Source: Acidimicrobiaceae bacterium
GTDB lineage: Bacteria > Actinomycetota > Acidimicrobiia > Acidimicrobiales > RAAP-2
Direction: 5' to 3'
DNA length: 36,298 nt
Assembly (NCBI GenBank): GCA_003138855.1
Contig: PLHF01000121.1
Location: 1-36,298 of the forward strand
Below, one piece after another: positions 1,820 to 26,704 of the stretch. Under the pieces are notes generated by a model. That model was given only the letters and a program-made list of their open reading frames with translations. It was not told where the DNA came from and did no database searches. The translations under genes and the position numbers were made by a program. Position 1 is the first letter of the stretch; every line of letters starts with the position of its first letter.

Positions 1820-1834
1820 GTGACGTTGCGTCAG
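1820..1834. promoter_or_regulatory. Candidate operator, copy 1 of 5 (GTGACG-TTG-CGTCAG)
   Basis: TGACG-TTG-CGTCA is a perfect 5-bp-arm palindrome. It fits the 15-bp pattern CTGACG-N3-CGTCAG with one outer mismatch. It sits in the intergenic space upstream of the aldehyde dehydrogenase. The same pattern occurs at 3687, 10026, 17001 and 26690. The form suits a TetR- or GntR-type dimer; the regulator is not in the window. Confidence 0.5.
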
Positions 1835-1872
1835 CAGTGTAGGTCCTGACCGTGGCGCCGGTGGGCGGGGAC

Positions 1873-3606
1873 TCAGGCCTGCGCCGGTGTGGGATCCACC
1901 GTCACGGTGTCGCGTCCCGACCGGAGCAGCGTCCCGGGAAGATTGCCGGTCGGCTTGCCGTCGGCCACGGTCTCGACCCCGTTGACCAGGACGCGGACCA
2001 CGCCCAGGGAGTCGGCGATGAGCCGGGGGCTGCCGCCTGGTAGGTCGTGGACCAGGGTGGCCGGTTCCGATCCGATGGTCTCGGGGTCGAAGACGAACAG
2101 GTCGGCGGACAGGCCCACGGCCACGCGGCCGCGATCGTGCAGGCCGAACAGCTCGGCGGGGGCCTCTGTCATCAGCTGGACGGCCCGCTCCAACGGCACC
2201 AGCTTCCGCTTGCGGAGGCAGTCGCCGAGGAACGAGGTCGGGTAGTTCGAGCCGCACATCCGATCGAGGTGGGCACCGGCGTCGGAGCCGCCCACCATGG
2301 CGCCGGGGTCGTTCCAGACCGCGACCCGCGCCTGCCACGAGGCGTCGTCGCCATCGGAGGCCTTTGGCCACAGCACCGTGCGCAGGTCGTCGGCGATGAC
2401 CAGGTCGAGCAGGGCGTCGAAGGGGGCCTTGCCCTGCTCCTCGGCGATCGATCCGACGTCGCGCCAGCTCAAACCTTCGTTTTCGGGGGCGAACGTGTCG
2501 CCGATGATGTAGTTGGCCCAGTGCGAGAGTCGGCGGAACACCCCGGCCTGGTCGGAGTGGGCCAACTCGTCGAGGTGGGAGCGGATACCCGGGTCGCGCA
2601 GCTGCTCGATCCGCTCGTCGACCGGCAGCCCCATGACGTCGCCCCATCCGGGGATGAGGAAGAGGGCGCAGTGGGTCCGGAAGCTCATGTTCATCGGCAC
2701 CAGCGTGGGCATGGTCAGCGCCACGATGCGGCCGCCGGCGCTGGCCGCCGCGGAGGAGGCCTCCAGCTGGCGCGCCGTCTTGGCCGGCGTCCGCGAGTCG
2801 ACGGTCAACAGATTCCAGTTGAGCGGTCGGCGGGCCGTGGTGGTCATGGCCACCATCAGGTCGATCTCCTGGTCGGAAAAGGTGTCGAGGCACCCGTCGG
2901 TGATGTACTCGAGGGTCGTGCCCGGGTGGTCGCGGACCACCTCGCAGAAGGCCAGCATCTCGCGGCGGTCGGCATGCCGGGAGGAGATCGGGTTGCCGTC
3001 CCCGTCGGAGTGGGTGCGTGACTGTGAAGAGGAGAACCCGAGCCCCCCGGCCTCGATCGATTCGGCCAGCAGCCGGGTCATCGCCGCCAGTTCGTCGTCG
3101 GACGCGACGTCGGAGGCCCGCTCGGATCCCATGACCCACCGGCGCAGCGCGCAGTGCCCCACCAGAAACCCGGCGTTCACCCCGAGGTTGCCCTCCAGTC
3201 GTTGGAGGTACTCGCCGAAACTCGTCCAGTCCCAGGCGATCCCGTTCTCGAGCGCGTCCAGGGGCATGCCCTCGACCTTGGCCATCATCCGCCGGATGTA
3301 GTCGTGGTCGGATGCCTTGATCGGGGCCAGGGTGAACCCGCAGTTCCCCCCGATCACGGTGGTCACACCGTGGAGGTTCGACGGGGAGGCAGTGGGGTCC
3401 CAGAAGAGCTGGGCATCGTAGTGGGTGTGCGGGTCGATGATCCCCGGGGCGACCACCAGGCCCTCGGCATCGAGCTCGGTGGCACCTCGCTCGTCCACCT
3501 CGCCGACCGCGACGATTCTCCCGTCACGGATGCCGACGTCGGCCCGACGGCCGGGAGCCCCGGTTCCGTCGACGACCAGGCCATTTCGGATCACGTACTC
3601 GAGCAT
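1873..3606 (-). CDS. D-aminoacylase-type (N-acyl-D-amino-acid deacylase) amidohydrolase
   Basis: This 577-residue protein belongs to the amidohydrolase superfamily, D-aminoacylase branch, which hydrolyses N-acyl or related amide bonds using zinc in a TIM barrel. It opens with the small beta-sandwich (VIRNGLVVDGTG), followed by the metal motif PHTHYD (His60, His62, Asp64), GGNCG with Cys89 at the position of the family's metal-ligand cysteine, VGHCALR, a late GGSDAGAHLDR, and the C-terminal DLFVFDPETI strand that closes the beta-sandwich. The ATG at 3606 follows AGGAAGG. It is monocistronic or read before the aldehyde dehydrogenase, 162 bp downstream. A candidate operator lies at 3687-3701. 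The real substrate is unclear, since many actinobacterial members have no known D-amino-acid role. Confidence 0.9.
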   Translation of the reverse strand: MLEYVIRNGLVVDGTGAPGRRADVGIRDGRIVAVGEVDERGATELDAEGLVVAPGIIDPHTHYDAQLFWDPTASPSNLHGVTTVIGGNCGFTLAPIKASDHDYIRRMMAKVEGMPLDALENGIAWDWTSFGEYLQRLEGNLGVNAGFLVGHCALRRWVMGSERASDVASDDELAAMTRLLAESIEAGGLGFSSSQSRTHSDGDGNPISSRHADRREMLAFCEVVRDHPGTTLEYITDGCLDTFSDQEIDLMVAMTTTARRPLNWNLLTVDSRTPAKTARQLEASSAAASAGGRIVALTMPTLVPMNMSFRTHCALFLIPGWGDVMGLPVDERIEQLRDPGIRSHLDELAHSDQAGVFRRLSHWANYIIGDTFAPENEGLSWRDVGSIAEEQGKAPFDALLDLVIADDLRTVLWPKASDGDDASWQARVAVWNDPGAMVGGSDAGAHLDRMCGSNYPTSFLGDCLRKRKLVPLERAVQLMTEAPAELFGLHDRGRVAVGLSADLFVFDPETIGSEPATLVHDLPGGSPRLIADSLGVVRVLVNGVETVADGKPTGNLPGTLLRSGRDTVTVDPTPAQA

Positions 3607-3686
3607 GGTGGTGTTCCCTTCCTGTGGTGATGGAAGCGTCCCCCCTCACCGGGAGCCGCGCCACCTTCGTCGGGTGCGGGCCAGAA

Positions 3687-3701
3687 CTGACTGACCGTCA
3701 G
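3687..3701. promoter_or_regulatory. Candidate operator, copy 2 of 5 (CTGACT-GAC-CGTCAG)
   Basis: This 15-bp near-palindrome has outer arms CTGA and TCAG and sits 81 bp upstream of the D-aminoacylase-type gene start. An inner, overlapping perfect palindrome CTGAC-C-GTCAG occupies 3691-3701. It matches the pattern found at four other promoters in the window. Confidence 0.55.
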
Positions 3702-3890
3702 ATTATGGCACTCCCACCGGTTCCGCGGGAGCGGCGATGAGTGGGCGTCGGGGAGGTCGGACGGTCGGTACGGATGCGAAGCGCGGCCCCGACGGCCCGG
3801 TCGGGCGGGACGGGAGGGTCACAGGGCAGTCGATGGTAATTTCTCGACATCCACCAACACTGGTTCCAGAACCACCTCCTGCCGGTCATC

Positions 3891-4709
3891 GTGCTGCTCC
3901 TCGGTGCCGGGTTGATCGTCCGCTTCGCCCACTGGGTGGGGGCGCGGCGGAGGCGTTGGGTCGACGCCCAGATCCGCCGACAGATCGAGTCGGGAGAGGT
4001 GGCCTCCGAGGGACTCAAGCGGTCCCGGGCCATCAGCGAGGCGGTCGAATGGGTGGCGGTGGCCCTCGCGTACTTCATCGCCGGCATCCTCGCGCTCGAC
4101 CGGCTGGGCATCCCGCTCACCACCCTGGTGGCCCCGGCCACCGTGGTCGGCATCGGGCTCGGCTTCGGGGCCCAGCAGATGGTGGGCGACCTGCTGGCCG
4201 GGTTCTTCCTCTTCGCCGAGCACCAGTTCGCCTTCGGCGACGTCATCCGGTTGTCCGTGCCCGGGCAGACGGTCGGAATCACCGGCACGGTCGAAGAGCT
4301 CACGCTCCGGGTCACCAAGCTGCGGACGGCCCAGGGCGAGCTGGTCGTGGTGCCCAACAGCGCGTTGCGTCAGGTCACCAACCTTTCGAAGGACTGGTCG
4401 CGGGCGGTCATCGACATCCCCGTTTCGGTGACCGAGGACCTGGAGCAGGTCACGACGTTGCTGAAGGACGTGGTCGGGGCCATGGCGGCGGACCCGCGGT
4501 GGAGCGACCTCCTGCTCGGGGCACCGGTGGTGGCCGGGGTGGAGACCATCGACGTGGGGTACGTGCAGCTCCGCTTGATCGCACGCACCCTCCCGGGACG
4601 CCAGTTCGAGGTGGCCCGGGAGATCCGAATGCGGGCGGCCACCGCACTTCGCACGGCGGGCATCACCTCGCCGTCGATGGGCGAGTCGGCCACCCAGGGG
4701 CAGCCGTGA
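3891..4709 (+). CDS. MscS-family small-conductance mechanosensitive channel
   Basis: MscS channels are inner-membrane heptamers that release solutes under hypo-osmotic shock. The 272 residues from GTG 3891 hold a hydrophobic segment at 1-12, a transmembrane helix near 52-70, and the TM3 pore region with GLGFGAQQMVGDLLAGFF near 89-106. The beta-domain follows (FGDVIRL, then VVVPNSALRQVTNLSKDW), and then the alpha/beta C-terminal domain. The start is doubtful. The frame is open back to a TAA at 3837, and residues encoded from 3840 continue the N-terminal helix, but no ATG, GTG or TTG lies between. ATG 3833 is one base out of frame. The stop overlaps the next gene as GTGA, so the two are translationally coupled. 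Confidence 0.88.
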   Translation: MLLLGAGLIVRFAHWVGARRRRWVDAQIRRQIESGEVASEGLKRSRAISEAVEWVAVALAYFIAGILALDRLGIPLTTLVAPATVVGIGLGFGAQQMVGDLLAGFFLFAEHQFAFGDVIRLSVPGQTVGITGTVEELTLRVTKLRTAQGELVVVPNSALRQVTNLSKDWSRAVIDIPVSVTEDLEQVTTLLKDVVGAMAADPRWSDLLLGAPVVAGVETIDVGYVQLRLIARTLPGRQFEVAREIRMRAATALRTAGITSPSMGESATQGQP

Positions 4710-5251: not shown

Positions 5252-5299
5252 TCGAGTCGGGCCGGCCCCGCCCCGGGGTCGTCCGGGACAGCGGGCGCC

Positions 5300-5503: not shown

Positions 5504-5505
5504 GC

Positions 5506-8785: not shown

Positions 8786-8810
8786 ACGTGACGTTCCTGC
8801 GGGGTCACGT
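8786..8810. other. Inverted repeat ACGTGAC-N11-GTCACGT at an intercistronic junction
   Basis: A perfect 7-bp inverted repeat spans the stop codon of the amidohydrolase (8805-8807) and the 46-bp gap before the acyl-CoA dehydrogenase. It could be an mRNA hairpin that tunes expression between operon genes, or a protein-binding site. No T-tract follows, so it is not a classic terminator. Confidence 0.35.
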
Positions 8811-10004
8811 GAAGTCGAGGCCGTAGAGCTTGATGGCGTTTCCCCGGAGGATCTTGTACCGCTCGTCGTCGGTGAGGTCCTTCATCTGCTTTTCGGCGAT
8901 CTGGCGGGTGTGGGGCCAGGTGGAGTCCGAGTGGGGGTAGTCCGACTCGTAGGTGATGTTGTCCACGCCGATCTCGTGGACCGACCGGAGGCCGTGGGCG
9001 TCGTCGAAGAAGCACCCGTAGATCTGCCGGTGGAAGTAGGTGGACGGCGGCTCGGGGACGATGTCCGCCACGCCGCCCCATCCCCGGTTCTCCTCCCAGA
9101 CCTTGTCGGCCCGCTCGAGGATGTAGGGGATCCACCCGATCTGCCCCTCGGCGTAGGCCAGCTTCAGCTCGGGGAAGCGGACCAGCACTCCCGAGAACAT
9201 GAAGTCGACCATGGAGAAGGTGGCGTTGGTGTGGGTCAGCGTCGACCCGACGGCCGGTGGCGCGTCCGCCGACGTGGACGGCATCTTCGAGGACGAGCCG
9301 ATGTGCATGTTGACCACCGTGCCCGTCTCGGCGCAGGCCCGGAAGAAGGGATCCCAGTAGTGACCCGGATCGTGCACCGAGGGCAGCCCGAGGAACGGCG
9401 GGATCTCGCTGAAGCACACGGCGCGCACGCCCCGTGTCGCGTTGCGCCGGACCTCCTCGGCGGCCAGCTCGGCGTCCCACAGTGGAACGATGATGAGCGG
9501 GATCAGCCTGCCCTTGGCCTCGGGCCCGCACCACTCCTCGACCATCCAGTCGTTGTAGGCCTTGACGCACAGCAGGCCGAGCTCCTTGTCCTTGGCCTCG
9601 GTGAAGGTCTGGCCGCAGAACCGAGGGAAGGTGGGGAAGCAGAGCGATGCCTCGAGGTGGTTGATGTCCATGTCCTCGAGGCGGAGGGGAACCAGGTACG
9701 AGCCCGGACGCATGTCCTCGTAGGTGATGCCGCGCATGGTGACCTCGTCGCGGGGCACGCCCACCGCGGAGTCGACCCTGAGCAGCGGACGCTTCAGGTC
9801 TTCGTAGTACCACCAGTCGGTGGGCACTCCCTCCGAGCCCGGCTTGACCGTGAGCTTGCCGCCGATGAACGTGATCTCGCCCATCGGTGCCCGGACCACC
9901 CGGGGGCCGGTCTCGTGGTACTTCTTCGGGAGGCGGTCCACCCAGACGTTGGCGGGCTCGACGACGTGGTCGTCGACGGAGATGATCATCGGCAGGTCGG
10001 CCAT
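8805..10004 (-). CDS. Metal-dependent amidohydrolase/decarboxylase, COG2159 family
   Basis: This 399-residue TIM-barrel amidohydrolase belongs to the family that includes ACMSD and gamma-resorcylate-type decarboxylases and many uncharacterised actinobacterial hydrolases. Visible markers are IISVDDHVVEP at the N-terminus, where DxH replaces HxH, NMHIGSSSKMPS with a likely metal-ligand His, and ESDYPHSDSTWPHT near the C-terminus with a likely metal-ligand Asp. ATG 10004 is chosen over the in-frame ATG at 10079. Conserved sequence begins at MADLPMIISVDDH, and a promoter at 10011-10040 would place the transcript start at or next to this ATG. It heads an operon with the acyl-CoA dehydrogenase pair. 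Whether it decarboxylates or hydrolyses its substrate is unknown. Confidence 0.88.
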   Translation of the reverse strand: MADLPMIISVDDHVVEPANVWVDRLPKKYHETGPRVVRAPMGEITFIGGKLTVKPGSEGVPTDWWYYEDLKRPLLRVDSAVGVPRDEVTMRGITYEDMRPGSYLVPLRLEDMDINHLEASLCFPTFPRFCGQTFTEAKDKELGLLCVKAYNDWMVEEWCGPEAKGRLIPLIIVPLWDAELAAEEVRRNATRGVRAVCFSEIPPFLGLPSVHDPGHYWDPFFRACAETGTVVNMHIGSSSKMPSTSADAPPAVGSTLTHTNATFSMVDFMFSGVLVRFPELKLAYAEGQIGWIPYILERADKVWEENRGWGGVADIVPEPPSTYFHRQIYGCFFDDAHGLRSVHEIGVDNITYESDYPHSDSTWPHTRQIAEKQMKDLTDDERYKILRGNAIKLYGLDFT

Positions 10005-10010
10005 GGGGCG

Positions 10011-10040
10011 AGTGTATCCCTCGTTCTGACGGTGTGTCAG
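10011..10040 (-). promoter_or_regulatory. Promoter of the amidohydrolase/acyl-CoA dehydrogenase operon, likely leaderless
   Basis: On the minus strand, CTGACA (10040-10035) matches the -35 consensus TTGACA at 5 of 6 positions. TACACT (10016-10011) fits -10, and the spacer is 18 bp. Only 6 nt separate the -10 from ATG 10004, so the mRNA would begin at or next to the start codon. The 15-bp operator at 10026-10040 overlaps the -35 box, the usual arrangement for repression. Confidence 0.55.
10026..10040. promoter_or_regulatory. Candidate operator, copy 3 of 5 (CTGACG-GTG-TGTCAG)
   Basis: This 15-bp near-palindrome with arms CTGAC and GTCAG overlaps the -35 region of the amidohydrolase operon promoter. 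It matches the shared pattern CTGACG-N3-CGTCAG with one inner mismatch. Confidence 0.6.
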
Positions 10041-10059
10041 GTGACGCGGGTTCCGCCGC

Positions 10060-15785: not shown

Positions 15786-16952
15786 TCAGCCGCGGGGCAG
15801 CCCGAGCATGCGCTCGGCCACCACGTTGCGCTGGATCTCGTTGGTGCCGGCGTAGATGGGACCGGCCAGCGCGAAGAGGTACCCGTCGAGCCACGGCGCG
15901 TCCGCCCCCCCGTCGTGCAGCTCGGCTGCGGGGCCCAGCAGGGCCAGGGCCGCCCGGTGGATGGCGAGGTCCGTCTCCGACCAGTGGATCTTGTTGGCGC
16001 TGGCCTCGGATCCCACCGATCCCCCGTCCAGCACCCGGGTGGCGGTCCACAGCGTGTTGAGCCGGTAGGCCTCGGCATCGATCCAGGCCTGGGCCACGGC
16101 ATCGGCGGTGAGCACCGCCCGCTCCGGGTCGAGCGCGAGTCGTTCCGCATAGAGCGCCACCAGTCGGGTGGCGGCCTCGCTGTAGCGCGCCGGGCTGCGG
16201 AGGCTGAGGCCGCGTTCGGAACCGGCGGTGGCCATGGCCACGTTCCATCCCCGCCCCACGCCTCCGAGGACCTGGGAGTCGGGGACGAACACCTCTTCGA
16301 AGAAGAGCTCCGCGAATCCGGTCTCCCCGTCGATCTGGGGGATGGGCCGCACGGTGACCCCTGGGGAGTCCATCTCGACGAGGAAGTAGGTGAGTCCCCG
16401 ATGGCGCTCGGCCTCGGGGTCGGTGCGGAAGAGGCCGAAGCACCACTCGGCGAACGCCCCACGCGAGGCCCACGTCTTCTGCCCGGTCAACACCCAGCCG
16501 TCGTCGGAGTGCGCCCGCCGGGCCCGGCTGCGGATGCCGGCCAGGTCGCTACCGGCATCCGGTTCGGACCAGCCCTGGCACCAGATCTCCTCGCCCGAGG
16601 CCATCGGCGGGAGGAACCTGGCCTTCTGCTGGTCGGTCCCGAACTCGGACAGGGTGGGCGCCAACAGGAAGATCCCGTTCTGGCTGACCCGCAGGGGGGC
16701 CTGGGCGCGCCAGTACTCCTCCTCGAAGATCAACCACTCGAGGATGCCCACGCCCCGACCGCCATACTCCTCGGGCCACGACACCACCGACCACCGATCG
16801 GCGAACATGGTCCGCTCCCACGCCCGGTGGGCCTCGAAACCCTCGGCGGTGTCGAGGGACGGAAGAGCATGCGGCGCAGGTGCGTGGGCGGACAGCCACG
16901 TGCGCGCCTCCTCGCGGAACGCCTCCTGGGCGTCGGTGTAGCGCAGGTCCAT
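15786..16952 (-). CDS. Acyl-CoA dehydrogenase, larger subunit of the second FadE-type pair
   Basis: This is a 388-residue FAD acyl-CoA dehydrogenase. It contains WCQGWSEPDAGSDLAG, QKTWASRGAFAEWC, then AGSERGLSL, where the conserved Glu lines up with LSFERG of the 7523 paralogue, and the C-terminal AGTNEIQRNVVAERMLGLPRG. ATG 16952 (MDLRYTDAQEAF) is chosen because it matches the paralogue's start; in-frame ATGs at 16964 and 16976 are close alternatives with no clearer ribosome-binding site. It is the first gene of a two-gene operon, divergent from the FadA6-like thiolase with a shared control region at 16953-17053. It probably acts on a steroid-derived acyl-CoA. Confidence 0.9.
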   Translation of the reverse strand: MDLRYTDAQEAFREEARTWLSAHAPAPHALPSLDTAEGFEAHRAWERTMFADRWSVVSWPEEYGGRGVGILEWLIFEEEYWRAQAPLRVSQNGIFLLAPTLSEFGTDQQKARFLPPMASGEEIWCQGWSEPDAGSDLAGIRSRARRAHSDDGWVLTGQKTWASRGAFAEWCFGLFRTDPEAERHRGLTYFLVEMDSPGVTVRPIPQIDGETGFAELFFEEVFVPDSQVLGGVGRGWNVAMATAGSERGLSLRSPARYSEAATRLVALYAERLALDPERAVLTADAVAQAWIDAEAYRLNTLWTATRVLDGGSVGSEASANKIHWSETDLAIHRAALALLGPAAELHDGGADAPWLDGYLFALAGPIYAGTNEIQRNVVAERMLGLPRG

Positions 16953-16996
16953 CGGGGTGTCCATGGTCGGGTCCATCGGCTCGAGGGTGTCCGGGG

Positions 16997-17019
16997 AAAT
17001 CTGACACACCACCAGATTT
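16997..17019. promoter_or_regulatory. Candidate operator, copy 4 of 5, in divergent promoter region
   Basis: CTGACA-CAC-CACCAG at 17001-17015 matches the shared 15-bp operator with some mismatches on the right arm. It is embedded in a longer perfect inverted repeat, AAATCTG-N9-CAGATTT (16997-17019). It lies between the divergent acyl-CoA dehydrogenase pair and the thiolase, so one site could control both directions. Confidence 0.5.
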
Positions 17020-17041
17020 TCGGCAACCACGGCCCATCGGT

Positions 17042-17053: not shown

Positions 17054-18259
17054 ATGCCCAACGCCGTGATCGTCGACGTGGTCCGCACCCCGGTGGGGAA
17101 GAAGAACGGCCGGTTGTCGGGCTGGCACGCCGTCGACCTGGCCGCTCAACCGCTCCGGTCGCTGATCGAACGGAACGACCTCGACCCGGCCCTGGTGGAG
17201 GACGTGATCTACGGGTGCACCATGACGGTGGGGGAGCAGGCGATGAACATCGGGCGCAACGCCGCCCTTGCCGCCGGCTTTCCCGACACCGTGCCCGGGA
17301 CGACGGTCGACCGGCAGTGCGGCTCGGCCCAGCAGGCGGTCCACTTCGCCGCCCAGGCGGTCATGTCGGGGGCGATGGACATTGTCATCGGCGGCGGCGT
17401 CGAAGCCATGAGCCGGGTTCCCATCGGGTCCACCACGGAGCCCGGTCCCGGCGAGGCATACGGCCCCACGGTGCAGGCCCGGTTCGACTTCATCCACCAG
17501 GGACTGTGCGCTGAGGAGATCGCCCATCGCTGGGGGATCGGCCGCGAGGAGATGGACCTGTTCGCCCTCCGCTCCCACGAGCGGGCAGCTACCGCCATCG
17601 CCGAGGGCCGGTTCGACAACGAGATCGTTCCGCTGGCCACCCGGCGTGCGCGCCTCGAGGACAGGGTGGCGGTGGCCGGCAGTGACCAGGGCGACCCTGC
17701 CGGCGAGGGCGTGCTGTCCTTCGACGAAGGAGTCAGGGCCGACTCCACTTACGAGAAGTTGGCGTCGTTGGCGCCGTGCTTCGTGGAGGACGGCCTGGTG
17801 ACGGCGGCCACCTCCTCGCAGATCTCCGACGGTGCGGCAGCCGTGCTGATCATGTCCGAGGAGCGGGCCGGGCAACTCGGCCTGCGACCCCGGGCCCGCT
17901 TCCACACCTTCGCGGTGGCGGCCAACGACCCGGTGATCATGCTCACCGCCCCGATCCCCGCCACCACGCGCGTGCTCGAGAAGTCGAAGCTCTCCCTCGA
18001 CGACATCGGTGCGGTCGAGATCAACGAGGCGTTCGCCTCGGTGGTGCTGGCGTGGGAGAAGGAGCACCATCCCGACATGGACAGGGTCAACGTCAACGGC
18101 GGCGCCATCGCCATCGGGCACCCCACCGGCGGGTCGGGAGCGCGGCTGATGGCCTCACTGCTCAACGAGATGGAGCGGACCGGGGCCCGCTACGGGCTCC
18201 AGACCATGTGCGAGGGCGGGGGCCAGGCCAACGCCACCATCATCGAACGGCTGGGGTAG
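17054..18259 (+). CDS. fadA6: Acetyl-CoA acetyltransferase (thiolase), FadA6-like
   Basis: This 401-residue thiolase cleaves a 3-ketoacyl-CoA with CoA. It has VDRQCGSAQQA with acyl-accepting Cys89, EINEAFASVVLAW, GGAIAIGHPTGGSGA with the catalytic His, and YGLQTMCEGGGQANATIIERL with the second catalytic Cys. The VPGTTVDRQCGS, PIPATTRVLEKS and TMCEGGGQAN segments recall mycobacterial FadA6 (Rv3556c) of the KstR2 regulon, which thiolyses a product of ring C/D opening. This assignment is from remembered sequence, not alignment. It is divergent from the second acyl-CoA dehydrogenase pair and convergent with the PAS/GGDEF/EAL gene. Presence in the same window as EchA20/IpdABC supports the assignment. 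Confidence 0.88.
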   Translation: MPNAVIVDVVRTPVGKKNGRLSGWHAVDLAAQPLRSLIERNDLDPALVEDVIYGCTMTVGEQAMNIGRNAALAAGFPDTVPGTTVDRQCGSAQQAVHFAAQAVMSGAMDIVIGGGVEAMSRVPIGSTTEPGPGEAYGPTVQARFDFIHQGLCAEEIAHRWGIGREEMDLFALRSHERAATAIAEGRFDNEIVPLATRRARLEDRVAVAGSDQGDPAGEGVLSFDEGVRADSTYEKLASLAPCFVEDGLVTAATSSQISDGAAAVLIMSEERAGQLGLRPRARFHTFAVAANDPVIMLTAPIPATTRVLEKSKLSLDDIGAVEINEAFASVVLAWEKEHHPDMDRVNVNGGAIAIGHPTGGSGARLMASLLNEMERTGARYGLQTMCEGGGQANATIIERLG

Positions 18260-18290: not shown

Positions 18291-21200
18291 CTACTCGGTG
18301 TCCGACTGCGGGCTCGTAGCCGCCCGCTTCTTGAAGTCGACGCGGTCCGCACGGGTCGGGCGTGACATCAGGTACCCCTGGTAGAGGTCGCAGCCGAGCT
18401 CGGCGACCCGCTGCAGTTGGATCGGCGTCTCGACACCCTCGGCCAGCACGACGAGGTCGAGGGCCTTGGAGAGCTGCACGATGGCGGCGACGATCGCCTC
18501 GTCGGTCTCGAGGATGCCCAGGCCGTCCACGAAGGACTTGTCGATCTTGAGGATCTTGACGGGCAGGTTCTTGAGCCGGGCGAGGGACGACGTGCCGGTG
18601 CCGAAGTCGTCGATGGCCAATCCGACGCCCATCTCGTGGATACCGCCGAGCGTGGCGATGGTTGCCGACGTCTCGCTCATCAGCATGCTCTCGGTGACTT
18701 CGAGCACGAGGGCCTCGGGCGGGAGACCCGAGTCGGCCAGCGCCGCGGCGATGGTGTCCAGCAGGTCGGCGTCGTTCAGCTGGTGGGCGGAGAGGTTGAC
18801 GGTGACGTAGGCATTCTCCGCACCGGGCAGCTCCCGCCGCCACTTGGCCATGGTCTGGCAGGCCTCGCGCAGGACCCAACGGCCGAGCGAGAAGATGAGG
18901 TCGGTCTCCTCGGCGAAGGGGATGAACTCCATCGGGCCCAGCAGGCCACGGGACGGGTGGTGCCAACGGACCAGTGCCTCCATCGCCACGATGCGGTCGT
19001 CGGCCACCGAGGCGATCGGCTGGTAGTGGACGGCCAACTCGTCGTGGTCGATCGAATGGCGAAGATCGTCGTAGATCTCGAGTCGGGCCACCGACTTGGC
19101 CCGGAGCGACTCGTCGAACACCTCGACCCTCGAGCGCCCCTTGTTCTTGGCCTGGAACATGGCCACGTCGGCCTGCTGCAGGATGTCCTGGGCGGTCTGC
19201 CGTCCCCGCATCACGAAGGAGACGCCTACGCTGCAGGTGACCACCACACTCCGCCCGGTGGAGAGTTGGACGGGCTCGGCCAGCAGCCTCGAGTACTCGG
19301 TGGCCAGGCTGACGGCCACATGGACGTCGTGGATGTTGCGGCACAGCACGACGAACTCGTCTCCCGAGAACCGGCTGACGACATCGCCGCCCCGCACTGC
19401 CGACTTGAACCGTTGGGCCAGGGCGAGCAGCACCTCGTCTCCGCTGGCGTGGCCGAACGAGTCGTTGACCAGCTTGAAGCGGTCGAGGTCGATGAAGAGC
19501 ACCGCCAGATTGGTCTCCCGCTGCATCGAGATGAGCAGTTCCCGTTCGAGCTCGTCGCTGAACAGCGACCGATTTCCCAGCCCGGTCAGCGAGTCGTGGT
19601 AGGCGAGCCAACTGAGCTGGGCCTCGGCCGCTTTGCGGTCGGTGACGTCGGTGAAGGAGCAGACCACCATGGGGGAGTCGTCCTGGCCGGAGCCGGACAG
19701 GAGCCGCGAGCTGAGCGACAGCCACTGCCGCCGCCCGTTGCCGTCGGAGACCCCGATGATCACGTCGTCCAGCGACTCGTTGGTGGCCAGCGTCTGCTCG
19801 TGGGGGAACATGTCGGCGGACAGCGGCTGCCCGTCCGCATCGATGGCGATCGACGACCCCGTGAAGATCTGGTGGCCGCTACCGGATTCGAGGCGATCGC
19901 CGAGGATCCGGGTGGCGGCCTCGTTCAGCGCGCAGATGTTCCCCGACTCGTCGAAGAGCACGATCCCTTCGCTCAGCGAGGCCACGACCGCCTCGTACCG
20001 CTCTTCGGCCGCCCGGCGGCCGGCCTCGGCCTGGCGGGCGTCGGTGAGCTCGGTGCACACGACGACCCAGCCGGAGGGCTGGGTGTCGTCGTCGATCAGG
20101 GGGTCGATCGAGACGAGGACGTCGACCTCGGAGCCGTCCTTGCGGTGGTGGGTCCGCTGGCCCCGCTCGAGGACGGCGGCGCTGTCGGTCCGGTTGGCGG
20201 TGACAACGGCCCCGATGGACAGGCCGGTTACCTCGTCCTCGCTCCAGCCGTAGATGGCCTGGGCGGCCTCGTTCCAGCTCTCGATCCTCCCGTCGGCGTC
20301 GATACCGATGATGGCGTCGGAGACGTGGGCCACCAGGCTGGCCCGGTAGCGGTTGGCCGCTTCGGCGGCGCGCCGCTCGGAGATGTCACGGGCGATGACC
20401 TGGTAAGCGGGCTCGCCGTTCCAGCTGGTGCGGACGCTGGTGACCTCCATGACGGTGATGCTGCCGTCGAACGACATGATCCGTGCCTCGCCGTGCTCGA
20501 AGAACTGGCCGTCCTCCGTGAGCTGGGCGAGCCGACCCGCCATGTCGGGGACGTCGTTGGGGTGCACGATGTCGGTGACGGGCATGCCGTAGTGCTCGGC
20601 GAACGCCTGGGCGTAGTCCTTGTCCTCCGCTCCCGAGAACATCAGCTTCACCGCGGCGCGGTTTCCGTACACCAGCCGCCCGTTCTGGTGGACGCACACC
20701 ACATCGGGGGAGACCTCGGTCAGCAGCCGGTAGCGCTCCACCAGGTCGCCGAGCTCGCCCTCGAACTTCTGCTGGGCGGTGACGTCGATCACCACGCCGG
20801 TGTAGAGGTGCTGCATCCGGCCGGTGGTGTCCCCGGGCCGGCCGCTCGGGACGGCCAGCGGCGAGGCCCGGACCACCACCAGGTGGTCGGTCCCGTCGGG
20901 GCAGGTCACCACCATGTGGAGGTCGAACTCGGCACAGGGCGTCCCGGCGCGGATGGCAGCCAGGATGGGTGCCAGGATGGACTCGCCGACCTCGGTGACG
21001 TTCCCGAACCCCAACCGGGCGAGGGACGGCTCACGGGGCCCGCCGGCCTCCGCGGAGCGGATACCGTCCGTCATGCCCATGAGTGATCCGCGGTGCACGC
21101 TGAAGCCGCGTGTGCCGGGTGCGAAGCCGAAGAACTCCTCGATCGGGTACGACCAGTAGACCGCATCGTATTGGCTGTCGTACACCCAGGTGACGGTCTG

Positions 21201-21332
21201 GAGCCCCTCACTGGTGAGGTCGACCTCCTGGGACAGCTCGAAGGCGTGGTCGCCGAAGACCGAATCGCCACGCTCGACCCGATCGAACGAGACCGCGTGC
21301 CTTCGACCGCCGTAGCTGCTTGCCGTGGCCAT
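18291..21332 (-). CDS. PAS-PAS-PAS-GGDEF-EAL cyclic-di-GMP signalling protein
   Basis: This is a 1013-residue soluble protein. The N-terminal ~190 residues look like a divergent PAS module, followed by PAS domains near 200-320, 330-432 and 445-565. The GGDEF domain is at about 575-740 and the EAL domain at 755-1000. The cyclase motif reads SGDEF (656-660) with an RGGD inhibitory-site motif (647-650). The EAL domain keeps EALVR (785-789), EVTES, DDFGTGTSS, LKIDKSF, EGVET and QGYLMSRP, so phosphodiesterase activity is likely. No transmembrane segment is seen. ATG 21332 is preferred over an in-frame ATG at 21383, because a sigma-28-like promoter lies between them. It is monocistronic. Confidence 0.93.
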   Translation of the reverse strand: MATASSYGGRRHAVSFDRVERGDSVFGDHAFELSQEVDLTSEGLQTVTWVYDSQYDAVYWSYPIEEFFGFAPGTRGFSVHRGSLMGMTDGIRSAEAGGPREPSLARLGFGNVTEVGESILAPILAAIRAGTPCAEFDLHMVVTCPDGTDHLVVVRASPLAVPSGRPGDTTGRMQHLYTGVVIDVTAQQKFEGELGDLVERYRLLTEVSPDVVCVHQNGRLVYGNRAAVKLMFSGAEDKDYAQAFAEHYGMPVTDIVHPNDVPDMAGRLAQLTEDGQFFEHGEARIMSFDGSITVMEVTSVRTSWNGEPAYQVIARDISERRAAEAANRYRASLVAHVSDAIIGIDADGRIESWNEAAQAIYGWSEDEVTGLSIGAVVTANRTDSAAVLERGQRTHHRKDGSEVDVLVSIDPLIDDDTQPSGWVVVCTELTDARQAEAGRRAAEERYEAVVASLSEGIVLFDESGNICALNEAATRILGDRLESGSGHQIFTGSSIAIDADGQPLSADMFPHEQTLATNESLDDVIIGVSDGNGRRQWLSLSSRLLSGSGQDDSPMVVCSFTDVTDRKAAEAQLSWLAYHDSLTGLGNRSLFSDELERELLISMQRETNLAVLFIDLDRFKLVNDSFGHASGDEVLLALAQRFKSAVRGGDVVSRFSGDEFVVLCRNIHDVHVAVSLATEYSRLLAEPVQLSTGRSVVVTCSVGVSFVMRGRQTAQDILQQADVAMFQAKNKGRSRVEVFDESLRAKSVARLEIYDDLRHSIDHDELAVHYQPIASVADDRIVAMEALVRWHHPSRGLLGPMEFIPFAEETDLIFSLGRWVLREACQTMAKWRRELPGAENAYVTVNLSAHQLNDADLLDTIAAALADSGLPPEALVLEVTESMLMSETSATIATLGGIHEMGVGLAIDDFGTGTSSLARLKNLPVKILKIDKSFVDGLGILETDEAIVAAIVQLSKALDLVVLAEGVETPIQLQRVAELGCDLYQGYLMSRPTRADRVDFKKRAATSPQSDTE

Positions 21333-22803: not shown

Positions 22804-22919
22804 AATGGCGGAGTAGATTTTTTCAATCGGCGATTTTCATTGACAGCCGGCAGGACACATCATTGACGTTGGAAGGACGTCGGCAACCGGTCGGGCGAGG
22901 CTCCGGGTGGCCGGCGCCC
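22613..22919. other. Intergenic stretch, AT-richer than its surroundings
   Basis: This 307-bp gap separates the beta-ketoacyl synthase from the end of ipdC. It contains the palindrome GACCTC-CTC-GAGGTC at the synthase ribosome-binding site and two CATTGAC direct repeats near 22839 and 22862. The possible 63-residue ORF is described separately. No RNA gene or convincing terminator is recognised. It presumably holds the synthase promoter, but I cannot place it with confidence. Confidence 0.4.
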
Positions 22920-24044
22920 TCAGGCCTCTGCCGCCGTCCCGAACCGATCGAGCACTCCCGTCGCCTCGCCGATGATCCGTTCGATCAACTGAGCGACGGT
23001 GGGGAGCTCGCCGATCTCCCCCACGACCTGACCGGTCGGCAGAACGCCCGCGTCGGTGCGGCCGTCGACGAGCGCGGCCTTGGTCATCATCGGCGCATTG
23101 GCGGCCATCATCACCTGTGGCCACGAGAGGTCGTTGCCCCGCTTCATGGCCCGCCCCTCCTTGACCAGGGCGACCAGCGTCGTGTCCGACTGGCGGCGGA
23201 AGGCGTGGGCATTGGCCAGCGCCCGGGGCATGTTGCGCAGCCAGCTCGACCTCTCGAGGTGGTCGATCAGCTCGGTGCGGATGACCCGTTGGGGAGCGCC
23301 ATCGACCGCAGTGGAGACCACCGTGCCGGTGACGGGCGTCTGGAGGTAGACCTGCTTCACCTCGTCGGGGACGCGACTCTCCTGGGTGAGGAGGAAACGA
23401 GTGCCCATGGCGATCCCCACGGCCCCGTAGGCCAACGCAGCCACCAGCCCCCGTCCGTCGAAGAACCCCCCGGCGGCCACCACGGCAACCGTGTCGCCCA
23501 CTGCGTCGACGACGCCCGGCGTGAGCAGCGAGGTGGGCACCGAGCCGGTGTGCCCGCCGCCCTCGCCCCCTTGGGCGATGACCGCATCGACGCCCCACCC
23601 GGCCACCTTCTCTGCATGGCGCCGGGCCCCGATGGTCGGCATCACCACCAGGCCGGCGTCACGGCACCGGGCGATGAGATCGGGGTTCGGGGCCTGGGCG
23701 AAGCTGGCCACCTTCACCCCGTTGTCGATCATCAGTGCCACCCGGTCCCCGATGTCGGCGACGTCGGTCCGCAGGTTGACGCCGAACGGGCGGTCGGTGC
23801 GCGAGCGCACCTCCGCGATGGCGGTGGCCAGCTCGGGACAGGTCATGGTGGCCGAGGCCAGGATGCCCAGTCCGCCGGCTTCGGCGGTGGCGGCAACCAG
23901 GCGCGGACCGGCCACCCACCCCATGCCGGTCTGGACGATCGGATAGCGGACGCCGACCAGATCACAGAAGCGGGTCTGCAGGGCGGGGTGCGCCCTCGGC
24001 GCGTGGGCCGACCCCGGCAGACCGCCCGGACGGCACGCGCTCAT
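22920..24044 (-). CDS. ipdC: Nitronate monooxygenase-family flavoprotein, IpdC-like
   Basis: This 374-residue FMN-binding TIM-barrel protein belongs to the 2-nitropropane dioxygenase/FabK family. It shows IVQTGMGWVAGPRLVAA, GGLGILASATMT, FGVNLRTD, and IAQGGEGGGHTGS with His165 in the family's catalytic-His position, then GGFFDGRGLVAALAYGAVG for phosphate binding. In Mycobacterium and Rhodococcus the homologue next to ipdAB (IpdC, Rv3553) is an oxidoreductase acting on a HIP-derived CoA thioester. Here it is the fourth gene of the echA20-ipdA-ipdB-ipdC order. The ATG at 24044 overlaps the ipdB TGA (ATGA). The assignment rests on family plus exact gene order. Confidence 0.9.
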   Translation of the reverse strand: MSACRPGGLPGSAHAPRAHPALQTRFCDLVGVRYPIVQTGMGWVAGPRLVAATAEAGGLGILASATMTCPELATAIAEVRSRTDRPFGVNLRTDVADIGDRVALMIDNGVKVASFAQAPNPDLIARCRDAGLVVMPTIGARRHAEKVAGWGVDAVIAQGGEGGGHTGSVPTSLLTPGVVDAVGDTVAVVAAGGFFDGRGLVAALAYGAVGIAMGTRFLLTQESRVPDEVKQVYLQTPVTGTVVSTAVDGAPQRVIRTELIDHLERSSWLRNMPRALANAHAFRRQSDTTLVALVKEGRAMKRGNDLSWPQVMMAANAPMMTKAALVDGRTDAGVLPTGQVVGEIGELPTVAQLIERIIGEATGVLDRFGTAAEA

Positions 24045-24826
24045 CCCCGCACCTCCCGGTTGCGGAGGCCCCGGGGGTCGAGCATGTTGCGGATCAGCTC
24101 CAACTCGGCCGGGGTCGGCGTGCGGGTGTGCGGTATGTCGGGGGGCACCACCAACTCGAACGCGGTGGCCTCCACGACGTCGTCGACCGTGACTTCGGGA
24201 TGGACGGAACGGATGCGCATCACCCGGTCGGGTGTATCGAAGTCGAACACGCCGAGGTTGGAGACGACGTGGCGGATCTCGTGGTAGCGGCCGGCCGCCG
24301 GGCCCGCCGCTGCCGCCCGGGCGTAGCCCACACCCGACACCACGTCGACCTGTTCGACGAACGACCGGGTCGAATGGTTCGGCACCCAGTAGCTGGTCGA
24401 ATGGTTGACGGTGTTGCCGGGGGCGCCCCGCACGCCCACCAGTTGGACCTTGGGACGTGCCCAGTCACCGATGGCGCTGATGTTCTGATTGCCCGTGCGG
24501 TCGATCTGGGAGGCCATCATGATGAGGTTCCGGCGACCCGACCACACGACGTCGAACACCTTCCGGTAGGGCATGTGCGACTCGAGGACCAGGGTTGACG
24601 GAGGTGCGCCGAGGGCAGGGGTGCCGTGCACCAGCGCGGCGTCCCCGTCGGTGAGCACCAGGTCGGGGGCGAACGTCATCCGGGCCAGTCGGGCCCCCAG
24701 GGCCGGAGCCGTGCCGAATGCACTGGCCATCACTTCGCCGTCCCCCCGGAACACCTCCGCACAGGCAATGGCGCAGAACTCCGCCCGGCTGACGCCGGGG
24801 GAGTCGGGAGCTGCCGGTGCCCCCAT
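24041..24826 (-). CDS. ipdB: CoA-transferase-family hydrolase, beta subunit, IpdB-like
   Basis: This 261-residue protein resembles the beta subunit of class I CoA-transferases. It contains EVFRGDGEVMASAFGTAP, LVLTDGDAALVHG, RRNLIMMASQIDRTGNQNIS, VQLVGVRGAPGNTVNHSTSYWV and a Val-His-Pro-rich end. In steroid degraders IpdA-IpdB opens the last ring of COCHEA-CoA by C-C bond hydrolysis instead of transferring CoA. The protein lacks an obvious catalytic Glu of the EN(G/A) type seen in true transferases. ATG 24826 overlaps the ipdA stop as TAATG, and the stop overlaps ipdC as ATGA. This tight coupling fits a stoichiometric heteromer. Confidence 0.92.
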   Translation of the reverse strand: MGAPAAPDSPGVSRAEFCAIACAEVFRGDGEVMASAFGTAPALGARLARMTFAPDLVLTDGDAALVHGTPALGAPPSTLVLESHMPYRKVFDVVWSGRRNLIMMASQIDRTGNQNISAIGDWARPKVQLVGVRGAPGNTVNHSTSYWVPNHSTRSFVEQVDVVSGVGYARAAAAGPAAGRYHEIRHVVSNLGVFDFDTPDRVMRIRSVHPEVTVDDVVEATAFELVVPPDIPHTRTPTPAELELIRNMLDPRGLRNREVRG

Positions 24827-25713
24827 TACTTCGCACCTCCCATGGGCGACGCGGCGAACTCTGCCGCCGCCGCCCGGGTGGCGGCCTGGTAGCCGGCTTC
24901 GTCCACAGCCAGGTACCGCTCCTCGAAGCCGGCCCACCCGTCGGGGTCGGAGGCCGCCGCCACATAGGCCCGTTGGAACTCCTCGTCGCGCGCGTAGTCC
25001 GGGACGCAGGCGGTGAAGTGGGCCCCGCCCGCCGTCTCCACCACACCGTCGGTCAACAGCCGGCTGATGCACATGGTCTGCAGGGGGCCCTCCGAAGCGA
25101 ACTGCTCGGTGTCGATGATCCGTTCGGTGGTGACGAAGCGGCGGTCGGCAGCCCCCAGGAACAGCTCGTCGAAGAAGGGATCGGGCCCGAGTATCTGGCC
25201 GGAGCCCGAGGAGTCGGCCCGGTTGACGTGGACGACTGCGGCGTCGAGATGCAGCGCCGGCATCGCCACCAACTCCTCGGCGTCCTCGTAGGGGGAGGTG
25301 ACGGTCCGCAACGACGGGTTGACCCGCATGACGTCGGACCCGAGGCCGGCCCTGGTGGGCAGGAACGGCACCCGCTGGGACGCAGCGAGCAGGCCGAGGT
25401 AGAACATGCCCTCGTCGATCTCCATGGCCTCGACCGCACCCGTCTGGCGGGCCACTTTGAAGTGGGGGTCGGTGGGGATGGAGTCGAGGGTGACGAAGCC
25501 GAAGACCACCTTGGCCACCTTGCCGGCTGCGCACAGCAGACCGACGTCCGGCCCCCCGTAGGACACCACGGTCAGGTCGCTCAGATCGGACCGGAGGATG
25601 GCACGGACAGCGGCCATCGGCTTGCGCCGCGATCCCCAGCCACCGATGCCGATGGTCATCCCGCTGTGCAATTCGCCCGTCAGGTCCTCGAGCGACAGCC
25701 GTTTGTCAGCCAT
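24826..25713 (-). CDS. ipdA: CoA-transferase-family hydrolase, alpha subunit, IpdA-like
   Basis: This 295-residue alpha subunit of the CoA-transferase fold has MTIGIGGWGSRRKPMAAVRA (the phosphate-loop-like region, 19-38), SYGGPDVGLLCAAGKV, FGFVTLDSI, an acidic EAMEIDEGMFYLGLLAA block (95-111), and FLPTRAGLGSDV. These are the features of IpdA (Rv3551) rather than of acetoacetate CoA-transferases. An acidic residue around Glu98-Glu101 is a candidate for the active-site Glu described for IpdAB; the exact equivalence needs alignment. ATG 25713 has only a weak GGTGGCGG ahead of it, but a 12-codon ORF with a better ribosome-binding site overlaps it. It lies 116 bp after echA20. Confidence 0.92.
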   Translation of the reverse strand: MADKRLSLEDLTGELHSGMTIGIGGWGSRRKPMAAVRAILRSDLSDLTVVSYGGPDVGLLCAAGKVAKVVFGFVTLDSIPTDPHFKVARQTGAVEAMEIDEGMFYLGLLAASQRVPFLPTRAGLGSDVMRVNPSLRTVTSPYEDAEELVAMPALHLDAAVVHVNRADSSGSGQILGPDPFFDELFLGAADRRFVTTERIIDTEQFASEGPLQTMCISRLLTDGVVETAGGAHFTACVPDYARDEEFQRAYVAAASDPDGWAGFEERYLAVDEAGYQAATRAAAAEFAASPMGGAK

Positions 25714-25744
25714 GAGCCGCCACCGCCAGGTGTGCGATGTCCAT
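25706..25744 (-). CDS. Possible 12-residue upstream ORF overlapping the ipdA start
   Basis: ATG 25744 begins a 12-codon frame, MDIAHLAVAAHG, whose TGA overlaps the ipdA start as ATGGCTGA. GAGGAGCGG precedes it, a better ribosome-binding site than that of ipdA itself. It could pass ribosomes to ipdA by re-initiation. It may also be chance. Confidence 0.3.
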   Translation of the reverse strand: MDIAHLAVAAHG

Positions 25745-25777
25745 TGTCGTTCCGCTCCTCTGGTCCCTCTGCCTCTT

Positions 25778-25805
25778 GCCCGGTCGGCCCTGTGCCCGGT
25801 CGGCC
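25778..25805. repeat. Direct repeat GCCCGGTCGGCC in the echA20-ipdA gap
   Basis: GCCCGGTCGGCC occurs at 25778-25789 and again at 25794-25805, a 16-bp period. It lies in the untranslated stretch between echA20 and ipdA. It may be a small slippage duplication or part of an RNA structure. Confidence 0.45.
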
Positions 25806-25829
25806 ACGCGTGCCGACCGGTGACGTGGC

Positions 25830-26588
25830 CTACCTCGTGGTGTCTGCGTCCCGCTTCTCGACGAATGCGGCCCGCTGCTCGTCGGCCACTCCTGCCACGT
25901 GGAGCTCGTAGGTGAACCCCTGCTCGAGCCGGTAGCTGCCCTTCACGTCGACCGGGTCGATCCCGTTGAGCGACTCCTTCGCCCGCCGGATGATGGTGGG
26001 GCTCTTGGTGGCGATGTCCGCCGCCACCCCGTAGGCAGCGTCGACCAGCTGGTCGCGCGGGACGACGCGTAGCACCGAGCCGTAGTGGTGGAGCTCGGCC
26101 GCCGTGGCCGGCTGTGCTGTGTAGACCATCGAGCGCATCCGCTGCTGGGGGACCAGACGCGACAGATGGGTGGCCGCGCCGAGCGCACCGCGGTCGACCT
26201 CGGGAAGCCCGAACGTTGCGTCCTCGGACGCCACGACGATGTCGGCGTTGCCGGCGATGCCCACTCCACCCCCGAGGCAGAACCCGTGCACGGCGGCGAT
26301 GACGGGAACCTCGCACTCGTAGACGGCTGCGAATGCCGCGTAGCAGCCCCGGTTGGCGCCGATCAGGGCCTGGTCGCCTTCGGCCTGGATCTCCTTGATG
26401 TCCACGCCGGCGCAGAACCCGCGCCCTTCGGCCCGGACGATCACCACCCGGTTGTCCGGGACCCGTCCGGCCGCGACGACCGCGTCGGCGAGTGCGAACC
26501 AGCCGGCGACGTCCAGGGCGTTGACGGGCGGATGGTCGATGACCACCTCGGCGATGCCTGGCAGCTTCTGGAGGGACGATATGGGCAT
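25830..26588 (-). CDS. echA20: Enoyl-CoA hydratase/isomerase-family ring hydrolase, EchA20-like
   Basis: This 252-residue crotonase-fold protein shows VNALDVAGWFALADAV, RAEGRGFCAGVDIKEI with the first oxyanion-hole residues near 60-61, and ANRGCYAAFAAVYECEVP. HGFCLGGGVGIAGNAD (second oxyanion site near 107) and ATFGLPEVDRGALGAATHLS follow, with EQGFTYELHVAGVADEQRAAF at the C-terminus. The last two blocks and the ANRGC segment closely recall mycobacterial EchA20 (Rv3550), which hydrolyses ring D of a HIP-derived CoA thioester. This resemblance is from memory. ATG 26588 has GGAG six bases upstream. It leads the echA20-ipdABC operon and is divergent from an SDR; a shared operator copy lies at 26690-26704. 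Confidence 0.93.
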   Translation of the reverse strand: MPISSLQKLPGIAEVVIDHPPVNALDVAGWFALADAVVAAGRVPDNRVVIVRAEGRGFCAGVDIKEIQAEGDQALIGANRGCYAAFAAVYECEVPVIAAVHGFCLGGGVGIAGNADIVVASEDATFGLPEVDRGALGAATHLSRLVPQQRMRSMVYTAQPATAAELHHYGSVLRVVPRDQLVDAAYGVAADIATKSPTIIRRAKESLNGIDPVDVKGSYRLEQGFTYELHVAGVADEQRAAFVEKRDADTTR

Positions 26589-26689
26589 GACCGGCTCCGG
26601 GGGGTTCGGAGGCGTGGGCCCGGGACCGTCTGCCGCCCGGGAGTCCCCGGGGATCGCGGATGGGTACGCGGGCACGCGCTCAGCGTGAT

Positions 26690-26704
26690 CTGATACAGCG
26701 TCAG
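26690..26704. promoter_or_regulatory. Candidate operator, copy 5 of 5 (CTGATA-CAG-CGTCAG)
   Basis: This 15-bp element has CTGA and TCAG arms with a good right arm, CGTCAG. It sits between divergent echA20 (start 26588) and the SDR (start 26736). It fits the shared pattern CTGACG-N3-CGTCAG with two inner mismatches on the left arm. It may control both transcripts. Confidence 0.5.

What the first reader, a model, noticed from the sequence alone, without database searches (positions are those of the whole stretch)
1820..26704. A shared 15-bp palindrome upstream of five catabolic transcription units
Sites fitting CTGACG-N3-CGTCAG occur at 1820-1834, 3687-3701, 10026-10040, 17001-17015 and 26690-26704. 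Every one lies in an intergenic region next to a catabolic gene start: aldehyde dehydrogenase, D-aminoacylase-type hydrolase, amidohydrolase/acyl-CoA dehydrogenase operon, the divergent acyl-CoA dehydrogenase/thiolase pair, and divergent echA20/SDR. The spacing of CTGA and (T/C)CAG is constant at 7 bases. It does not look like the KstR or KstR2 operators as I remember them, and no regulator gene is in the window, so it may define an undescribed steroid-type regulon in this lineage.
Basis: partly seen in the sequence, partly recalled or inferred. Interest (0 to 1): 0.75.

Follow-up and report, generated by a model that had tools for sequence, protein, structure and literature searches.

The report
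Operator of an unstudied catabolic repressor
Five short mirrored DNA sequences next to steroid- and acyl-CoA-breakdown genes appear to be landing sites for one little-studied TetR-type repressor, whose gene probably lies about 3 kb beyond the left edge of the window; the same repressor and site recur in relatives and in Streptomyces.

Summary
The five palindromes are real. Flanking bases extend it to a 19-bp operator, ATCTGACG-N3-CGTCAGAT. The exact core is strongly over-represented in 61 related genomes (131 vs 10 control) and lies almost wholly between genes in the stretches examined (32 of 34 sites intergenic or at a start). All five sites recur upstream of orthologous genes (amidohydrolase 29 of 33; aldehyde dehydrogenase only 5 of 18), against 3 of 120 control regions. 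Three of five abut a -10-like hexamer, a repressor geometry.

The likely regulator is a TetR protein with a TetR_C_38 domain ("P0002") on contig C98; synteny puts it about 3 kb beyond the window's left edge. Genomes with P0002 average nine times more exact sites. The pairing recurs near P0002 homologues in 37 of 50 Streptomyces loci. A genome that kept the neighbouring KstR-like TetR but has no detected P0002 lacks the sites at three promoters.

Targets include FadD3-, EchA20- and IpdAB-like genes of steroid ring C/D catabolism, but the regulon is wider. The operator differs from KstR2's. Eight paper searches found no description. Binding, ligand and sign of regulation are inferred.

The parts
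1818..1836 (.). Operator upstream of the aldehyde dehydrogenase gene (241-1710 or -1800, minus)
   Evidence: 3 mismatches to the 19-mer; orthologous site in 5 of 18 upstream regions (16 after removing duplicate records); TACACT hexamer abuts it on the gene's strand
3685..3703 (.). Operator upstream of the Amidohydro_3 gene (1873-3606, minus)
   Evidence: 2 mismatches; orthologous site in 11 of 12 (9 of 10 without duplicates); TAATCT hexamer overlaps its edge
10024..10042 (.). Operator upstream of the Amidohydro_2 gene (8805-10004, minus) heading a run of genes with acyl-CoA dehydrogenases
   Evidence: 3 mismatches; orthologous site in 29 of 33, including 3 of 3 Actinomadura loci; a TACACT hexamer lies 3' of it
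16999..17017 (.). Operator between divergent acyl-CoA dehydrogenase (15786-16976, minus) and thiolase (17054-18259, plus)
   Evidence: 3 mismatches; upstream of thiolase orthologues in 7 of 11 and of acyl-CoA dehydrogenase orthologues in 3 of 6
26688..26706 (.). Operator between divergent EchA20-type hydratase (25830-26588, minus) and SDR (26736-27581, plus)
   Evidence: 4 mismatches to the 19-mer; site at <=4 mismatches in 23 of 29 EchA20 and 22 of 28 SDR upstream regions, 16 and 15 at <=3; TACTGT hexamer abuts it
241..1710 (-). Aldehyde dehydrogenase, predicted target
   Evidence: PF00171; no NCBIfam model shown at 1e-80 reaches its cut-off
1873..3606 (-). Amidohydro_3 / D-aminoacylase-like hydrolase, predicted target
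   Evidence: PF07969
8805..10004 (-). Amidohydro_2 hydrolase, predicted target
   Evidence: PF04909
15786..16976 (-). Acyl-CoA dehydrogenase, predicted target
   Evidence: PF02770/PF02771/PF00441 on the longer frame 15786-17030
17054..18259 (+). Thiolase, predicted target
   Evidence: PF00108/PF02803; TIGR01930 over cut-off, steroid thiolase PRK07850 422 bits under its cut-off 515
22920..26588 (-). EchA20 - IpdA-like - IpdB-like - IpdC-like run of genes, predicted target unit
   Evidence: PRK07938 411 bits over cut-off 260 for EchA20; CoA_trans and NMO domains by Pfam for the rest
26736..27581 (+). SDR oxidoreductase (PRK07856), predicted target
   Evidence: 359 bits over cut-off 255

Best explanation
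The five palindromes are operators of one TetR-family regulator, called P0002 here: 278 aa, contig C98:2669-3505 minus strand, with a TetR_N DNA-binding domain and a TetR_C_38 (PF19352) ligand domain. A dimer would bind ATCTGACG-N3-CGTCAGAT, a site that often abuts the -10 hexamer and so should block transcription start. An acyl-CoA or related pathway intermediate would release it and switch on the aldehyde dehydrogenase, the two amidohydrolases, the acyl-CoA dehydrogenase/thiolase pair and the EchA20-IpdABC/SDR genes, together with a FadD3-type ligase and other CoA-ester genes elsewhere in the genome. Shown by computation: site conservation, intergenic placement, target classes, co-occurrence and proximity with P0002, promoter geometry. 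Inferred: physical binding, repression rather than activation, an acyl-CoA ligand.
For: Exact core 131 sites vs 10 control in 61 genomes. In 20 stretches of three order members 32 of 34 sites (<=2 mm) are intergenic or at a start although about 90% of DNA is coding; 160 kb of control stretches hold none. Orthologous promoters keep the five sites to differing degrees; control regions 3 of 120. Target families against 49 control genes. P0002 over 100 bits in 33 genomes, mean 3.64 exact sites; 28 others, mean 0.39 (p 1.8e-8). A site lies close upstream of P0002 in 9 of 30 loci, 1 mismatch in G055, and 6 bp upstream in G060 (coordinates). Sites lie near P0002 homologues in 37 of 50 Streptomyces and 2 of 3 Actinomadura loci; reversed and 20 scrambled palindromes give 0 there. 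All 35 of 53 such loci in which the divergent acyl-CoA dehydrogenase/thiolase pair was detected carry the site between them. The KstR-like P0001 has no homologue in those 53 loci. G023 keeps the KstR-like protein and catabolic genes but has no detected P0002 and no site at three promoters. Recognition-helix segment SPATFYQYF nearly constant in 12 homologues. A -10-like TAnnnT abuts or overlaps 3 of 5 window sites, and 16 of 34, 4 of 15 and 31 of 65 others, vs 3-6% expected. Own genome: 19-mer 20 vs 4 control (partly circular).
Against: No binding or expression data. A site is close to P0002's own gene in only 9 of 30 loci; G001, G005, G006, G008, G009 and others have none. The aldehyde dehydrogenase site is kept in only 5 of 18 regions. 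The KstR-like P0001 co-occurs with P0002 in 32 genomes, so co-occurrence hardly separates them. Non-Streptomyces, mostly acidimicrobial loci near P0002 hold a <=2-mismatch site in only 9 of 27. Three genomes with P0002 (G006, G037, G048) have no exact core and nine without it have one or two. At 3 mismatches the reversed control underestimates background (G042, G047). Sites in this genome are more degenerate than in other families. Some good sites precede genes outside CoA-ester catabolism.
Confidence: 0.85

Rival explanations
1. The same sites are the operator of the KstR-like TetR (P0001, C98:3626-4228) beside P0002, with P0002 a bystander or partner.
For: P0001 matches the KstR model (160 bits, cut-off 280) and solved KstR. 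Genomes with P0001 average 3.48 exact sites vs 0.57 without (p 1.8e-7). A site lies upstream of P0001 in 7 of 30 loci, mostly the same intergenic region as P0002.
Against: G023 has P0001 but not the sites. G052 has a P0002 homologue, no detected P0001, and 6 exact sites vs 2 control. In G055 and G033 the site is at P0002 and not at P0001. No P0001 homologue in the 53 Streptomyces/Actinomadura loci where sites abound. Its recognition helix is nearly that of KstR, whose operator (recalled) is unlike these sites.
Confidence: 0.08
2. The sites belong to another, unexamined regulator (one of about 30 further TetR genes, or another family), and P0002 is itself only a target or a linked gene.
For: 32 TetR_N matches in the genome. 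In G055 a site also precedes a second TetR gene. Not every P0002 gene has a site.
Against: The tie to P0002 holds in several families and in Streptomyces with different neighbours. I tested only P0001 and P0002 for co-occurrence, so others are not excluded.
Confidence: 0.06
3. Chance palindromes of GC-rich DNA picked by eye.
For: The core pattern at <=2-3 mismatches is at chance in window and genome; the flanks were read from hits in the same genome.
Against: Exact-core excess in other genomes, intergenic placement, orthologous conservation vs 3 of 120 controls, and Streptomyces loci vs scrambled palindromes.
Confidence: 0.01

Closest known systems
KstR2 regulon (mycobacteria, rhodococci; HIP catabolism)
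   Same: TetR-type regulator with a palindrome in intergenic regions of divergent catabolic genes; overlapping target functions: FadD3, EchA20, IpdAB, IpdC, IpdF (PMC3068626 and PMC5380842, passages seen).
   Different: Operator AnCAAGnnCTTGnT (PMC3068626) vs ATCTGACGN3CGTCAGAT; no KstR2-type site at <=1 mismatch in the window. P0002 carries TetR_C_38. The regulon here is wider and occurs in Streptomyces beside an acyl-CoA dehydrogenase/thiolase pair.
KstR regulon (cholesterol catabolism)
   Same: A KstR-like TetR is encoded next to P0002; overlap in kinds of target (acyl-CoA dehydrogenases, ligases, ChsH2-type proteins; KstR target list recalled).
   Different: KstR operator TnnAACnnGTTnnA (recalled) has one 1-mismatch hit in the window, inside a gene.
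EthR and FasR
   Same: Closest solved folds: EthR TM 0.84 by target length at 21% identity, FasR up to 0.76; EthR also best by profile (E 2.3e-10).
   Different: About 20% identity; EthR's motif is described as larger, multi-copy and not a simple palindrome (PMC4482099, section 11 read).
FadR/DesT-type acyl-CoA-responsive TetR regulators
   Same: Would work alike: palindromic operator at lipid-gene promoters, acyl-CoA ligand; FadR, DesT and FasR structures with acyl-CoA are among the fold matches.
   Different: 15-20% identity; operators differ (recalled); P0002's ligand is unknown.

Membership tests
KstR2 regulon | Operator AnCAAGnnCTTGnT at target promoters | tested here: not met
   No hit at <=1 mismatch in the window; 17 at 2 mismatches (4 expected), none at the five promoters, 15 of the 17 wholly inside called genes. 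Other contigs were not scanned for it.
KstR2 regulon | Target set of HIP catabolism (FadD3, EchA20, IpdAB, IpdC, IpdF) | tested here: met
   EchA20-type PRK07938 411>260 and SDR PRK07856 359>255; FadD3 family 728>657 with a site on C29. IpdAB/IpdC-like only by Pfam domain and gene order; that PRK07856 is IpdF is recalled.
KstR2 regulon | Regulator is a KstR2 orthologue | tested here: inconclusive
   P0002 has TetR_C_38 and its best solved relatives are EthR; no KstR2 protein was compared directly, and a KstR2 orthologue was not sought in this genome.
KstR | KstR equivalog model over cut-off | tested here: not met
   Neighbour P0001 160 bits vs cut-off 280; P0002 matches no KstR model
TetR-family transcriptional regulator | N-terminal TetR_N domain with C-terminal ligand domain | tested here: met
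   P0002: PF00440 27.2>24 and PF19352 119.5>23.9 bits; all-helical model of its 90%-identical relative, pLDDT 84
TetR-family transcriptional regulator | Binds a palindromic operator as a dimer, relieved by a ligand | not testable with these tools
   Operator inferred from sequence; no binding data

The most novel reading that the evidence does not exclude
P0002 founds a widely spread actinobacterial class of CoA-ester catabolism repressors (TetR_C_38) whose operator has stayed almost unchanged between Acidimicrobiia, Actinomadura and Streptomyces. In Acidimicrobiales it has taken over the steroid ring C/D genes that KstR2 controls in mycobacteria, so one pathway is run through unrelated operators in two lineages.
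Probability: 0.55. Interest if true: 0.65.

Novelty: new member of a known kind. Interest (0 to 1): 0.55.

Why it matters
It gives a testable regulator-operator pair for mostly uncultured soil actinobacteria whose steroid and CoA-ester catabolism I found linked to no regulator in the papers searched. It can be tested at once in Streptomyces, where the homologue and, in many species, a nearby divergent target pair are present. If true, HIP-type catabolism is wired to different repressors in different actinobacteria, and the motif becomes a tool for finding unannotated catabolic genes.

Tried and rejected
Core pattern at <=2 mismatches as a genome scan: at chance. It was replaced by the 19-mer, whose flanks were chosen from hits in the same genome, so one search is partly circular. 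The 3-mismatch counts in relatives were dropped as evidence because G042 and G047 exceed the control almost wholly through 3-mismatch hits. KstR-like P0001 as regulator: considered first, demoted (see rivals). KstR and KstR2 operators: not found at the promoters. The first -10 background test was unfair to the fixed operator letters and was replaced by grafted flanks. Pfam scan of a wrong reading frame downstream of 3737 gave nothing and that gene is left unnamed. Paper searches found no description of this operator or of TetR_C_38; listings are capped (10-15 shown of up to 20,788), the library holds open-licence papers only, and the one letter match is an unrelated adenovirus paper. PMC4482099 lists 11 new mycobacterial TetR motifs only as logos, not held as text, so they could not be compared. 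Gene calls come from a home-made caller trained on the window, so some starts are wrong.
Full report
OBSERVATION. Taken alone the pattern is unremarkable: at <=3 mismatches the window has 28 matches against 37.3 expected, and at <=2 mismatches the whole genome has 240 against 293 for the pattern read backwards. The best hits in non-coding DNA often have AT before and AT after the core. The extended 19-mer ATCTGACG-N3-CGTCAGAT at <=3 mismatches has 20 places against 4 for the reversed control. By my gene of the 20 are intergenic, 3 lie within 65 bp of a called start and 3 are coding. Because the 19-mer was derived from this genome, I treat that count as a lead and rest the case on other genomes. 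The window's fifth site (26690) has 4 mismatches to the 19-mer and is not among the 20.

RELATIVES. In 61 genomes (own plus 60 relatives) the exact core occurs 131 times against 10 for the control. In 20 stretches of three order members, chosen from the site lists, there are 34 sites at <=2 mismatches: 31 intergenic, 1 at a gene start, 2 in called coding DNA. About 90% of control DNA is coding, and 20 control stretches of 8 kb hold no such site. Target genes with a start within about 260 bp (49) include 6 acyl-CoA dehydrogenases, 5 ChsH2-type OB-fold proteins, 4 AMP-binding ligases, 4 SDRs, 4 luciferase-like monooxygenases, 3 family III CoA transferases, 3 Amidohydro_2, 2 enoyl-CoA hydratases and 1 CoA transferase; single members match families with no clear tie to CoA esters (TrkH, CNNM, Pirin), and only 25 of 42 families were shown. 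Of 49 control genes (from 134 called), 3 are SDRs and none of the other families named here is among the 25 of 76 shown. NCBIfam at 1e-100 named two FadD3-family ligases, one PRK07938 (EchA20-type) and one PRK07856 SDR among the targets. In the own genome a FadD3-family ligase (728 bits, cut-off 657) on contig C29 also carries a site.

FOOTPRINTS. For each window gene with a site I compared upstream regions of orthologues of at least 50% identity in the loci at hand. Sites at <=3 mismatches: Amidohydro_2 29 of 33, Amidohydro_3 11 of 12, thiolase 7 of 11, acyl-CoA dehydrogenase 3 of 6, aldehyde dehydrogenase 5 of 18. At <=4 mismatches EchA20 has 23 of 29 and SDR 22 of 28 (16 and 15 at <=3). Without them Amidohydro_3 is 9 of 10, aldehyde dehydrogenase 5 of 16, EchA20 22 of 28, SDR 21 of 27. 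Nine control genes from the same clusters gave 3 of 120 regions at <=4 mismatches. The Amidohydro_2 site is also present in 3 of 3 Actinomadura loci.

REGULATOR. One own-genome site lies between two divergent TetR genes on contig C98: a KstR-like protein P0001 and P0002, which carries TetR_N and TetR_C_38. P0002 homologues over 100 bits occur in 33 of 61 genomes, which average 3.64 exact sites; the 28 without average 0.39 (p 1.8e-8). For P0001 (over 140 bits, also 33 genomes) the figures are 3.48, 0.57 and 1.8e-7; the two sets share 32 genomes. What separates them: G023 has P0001, EchA20, SDR and Amidohydro_2 orthologues, no detected P0002, and no site at those promoters, although it has one exact core elsewhere. 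G052 has a P0002 homologue, no detected P0001, and 6 exact sites against 2 control. G055 and G033 have the site at P0002 but not at P0001. A site at <=4 mismatches is close upstream of P0002 in 9 of 30 loci and of P0001 in 7 of 30, so autoregulation is not universal.

BEYOND THE ORDER. P0002 homologues were found in 20 of 296 genomes sampled from the phylum, own included; only the best 8 candidates per genome were scored. Sites at <=2 mismatches lie within the fetched flanks in 37 of 50 Streptomyces, 2 of 3 Actinomadura and 9 of 27 other, mostly acidimicrobial loci. The reversed control gave 0 in all three groups; 20 scrambled palindromes gave 0 except one with a single locus in the third group. 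In the Streptomyces-type locus examined the site lies between a divergent acyl-CoA dehydrogenase and a thiolase-like gene. Of the 53 Streptomyces and Actinomadura loci, 35 hold that pair by my search and all 35 have the site between them. No P0001 homologue is in those 53 loci; it is in 17 of the 80. The Streptomyces loci are related and not independent.

WHERE THE REGULATOR SITS. Four related records (L231, L232, L234, L236) carry the KstR-like gene, P0002, one further gene, in L231 and L232 a repeat-rich gene, then aldehyde dehydrogenase and Amidohydro_3; in L236 other genes stand between the first two. Matches of L231 and L232 run to position 1 of own contig C98 and on from the start of the window. 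So C98 (reversed) and C109 are probably neighbours, the break falls in a repeat-rich gene, and the regulator lies about 3 kb beyond the window's left edge. This is inferred from synteny, not from an assembled join.

MECHANISM. In three of five window promoters a -10-like hexamer touches the operator. The same holds for 16 of 34, 4 of 15 and 31 of 65 other sites against 3-6% expected from grafted flanks. A dimer there would block initiation, hence repression (inferred). The predicted fold of the 90%-identical relative in L231 (pLDDT 84) is closest to EthR; FasR, DesT and FadR follow among others, and the listed FasR, DesT and FadR entries include acyl-CoA complexes, which makes an acyl-CoA ligand plausible but unproven.

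COMPARISON. KstR2 controls the corresponding genes in mycobacteria through AnCAAGnnCTTGnT (PMC3068626, passages seen; pathway in PMC5380842, passages seen). The window has no such site at <=1 mismatch; 17 hits at 2 mismatches exceed the 4 expected, but 15 lie wholly inside called genes and none is at the five promoters. So the system works like KstR2 but is not KstR2 by operator. Whether a KstR2 orthologue exists in this genome was not tested. No paper shown in eight searches describes this operator or a TetR_C_38 regulator.

Noticed in passing
window 1-198 and 12492-13916: Repeat-rich coding sequence with many [16 protein letters not shown]-like units (read by eye); a gene of this kind spans the likely gap between contigs C98 and C109 and may have caused the assembly break.
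   Followed up: partly
window 35856-35930: tRNA-Ala (CGC) gene at the right end.
   Followed up: no
window 18291-21332: Long minus-strand open reading frame (about 1014 aa), not scanned against any library.
   Followed up: no
own genome C5:94296-94314 (L002) and C45:97871-97889 (L009): Sites upstream of a proteasomal-ATPase-like gene and between an exonuclease and a dUTPase/wax-ester-synthase pair: possible targets outside CoA-ester catabolism that do not fit the regulon simply.
   Followed up: no
G055:C35:39534-39552: A site also precedes a second, different TetR gene, hinting at a regulator cascade.
   Followed up: partly
L324 (G033) and L325 (G044): Two genomes filed in different families give the same EchA20/SDR promoter results, which suggests bin contamination.
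   Followed up: no
L171, L187, L223, L210, L212: P0002 homologues outside the own family sit near isochorismatase-domain, luciferase-like and AMP-ligase genes.
   Followed up: partly
window, 17 places: KstR2-like pattern at 2 mismatches is in excess (17 vs 4 expected by dinucleotide shuffles), nearly all inside genes; probably codon structure, which such shuffles do not keep.
   Followed up: partly
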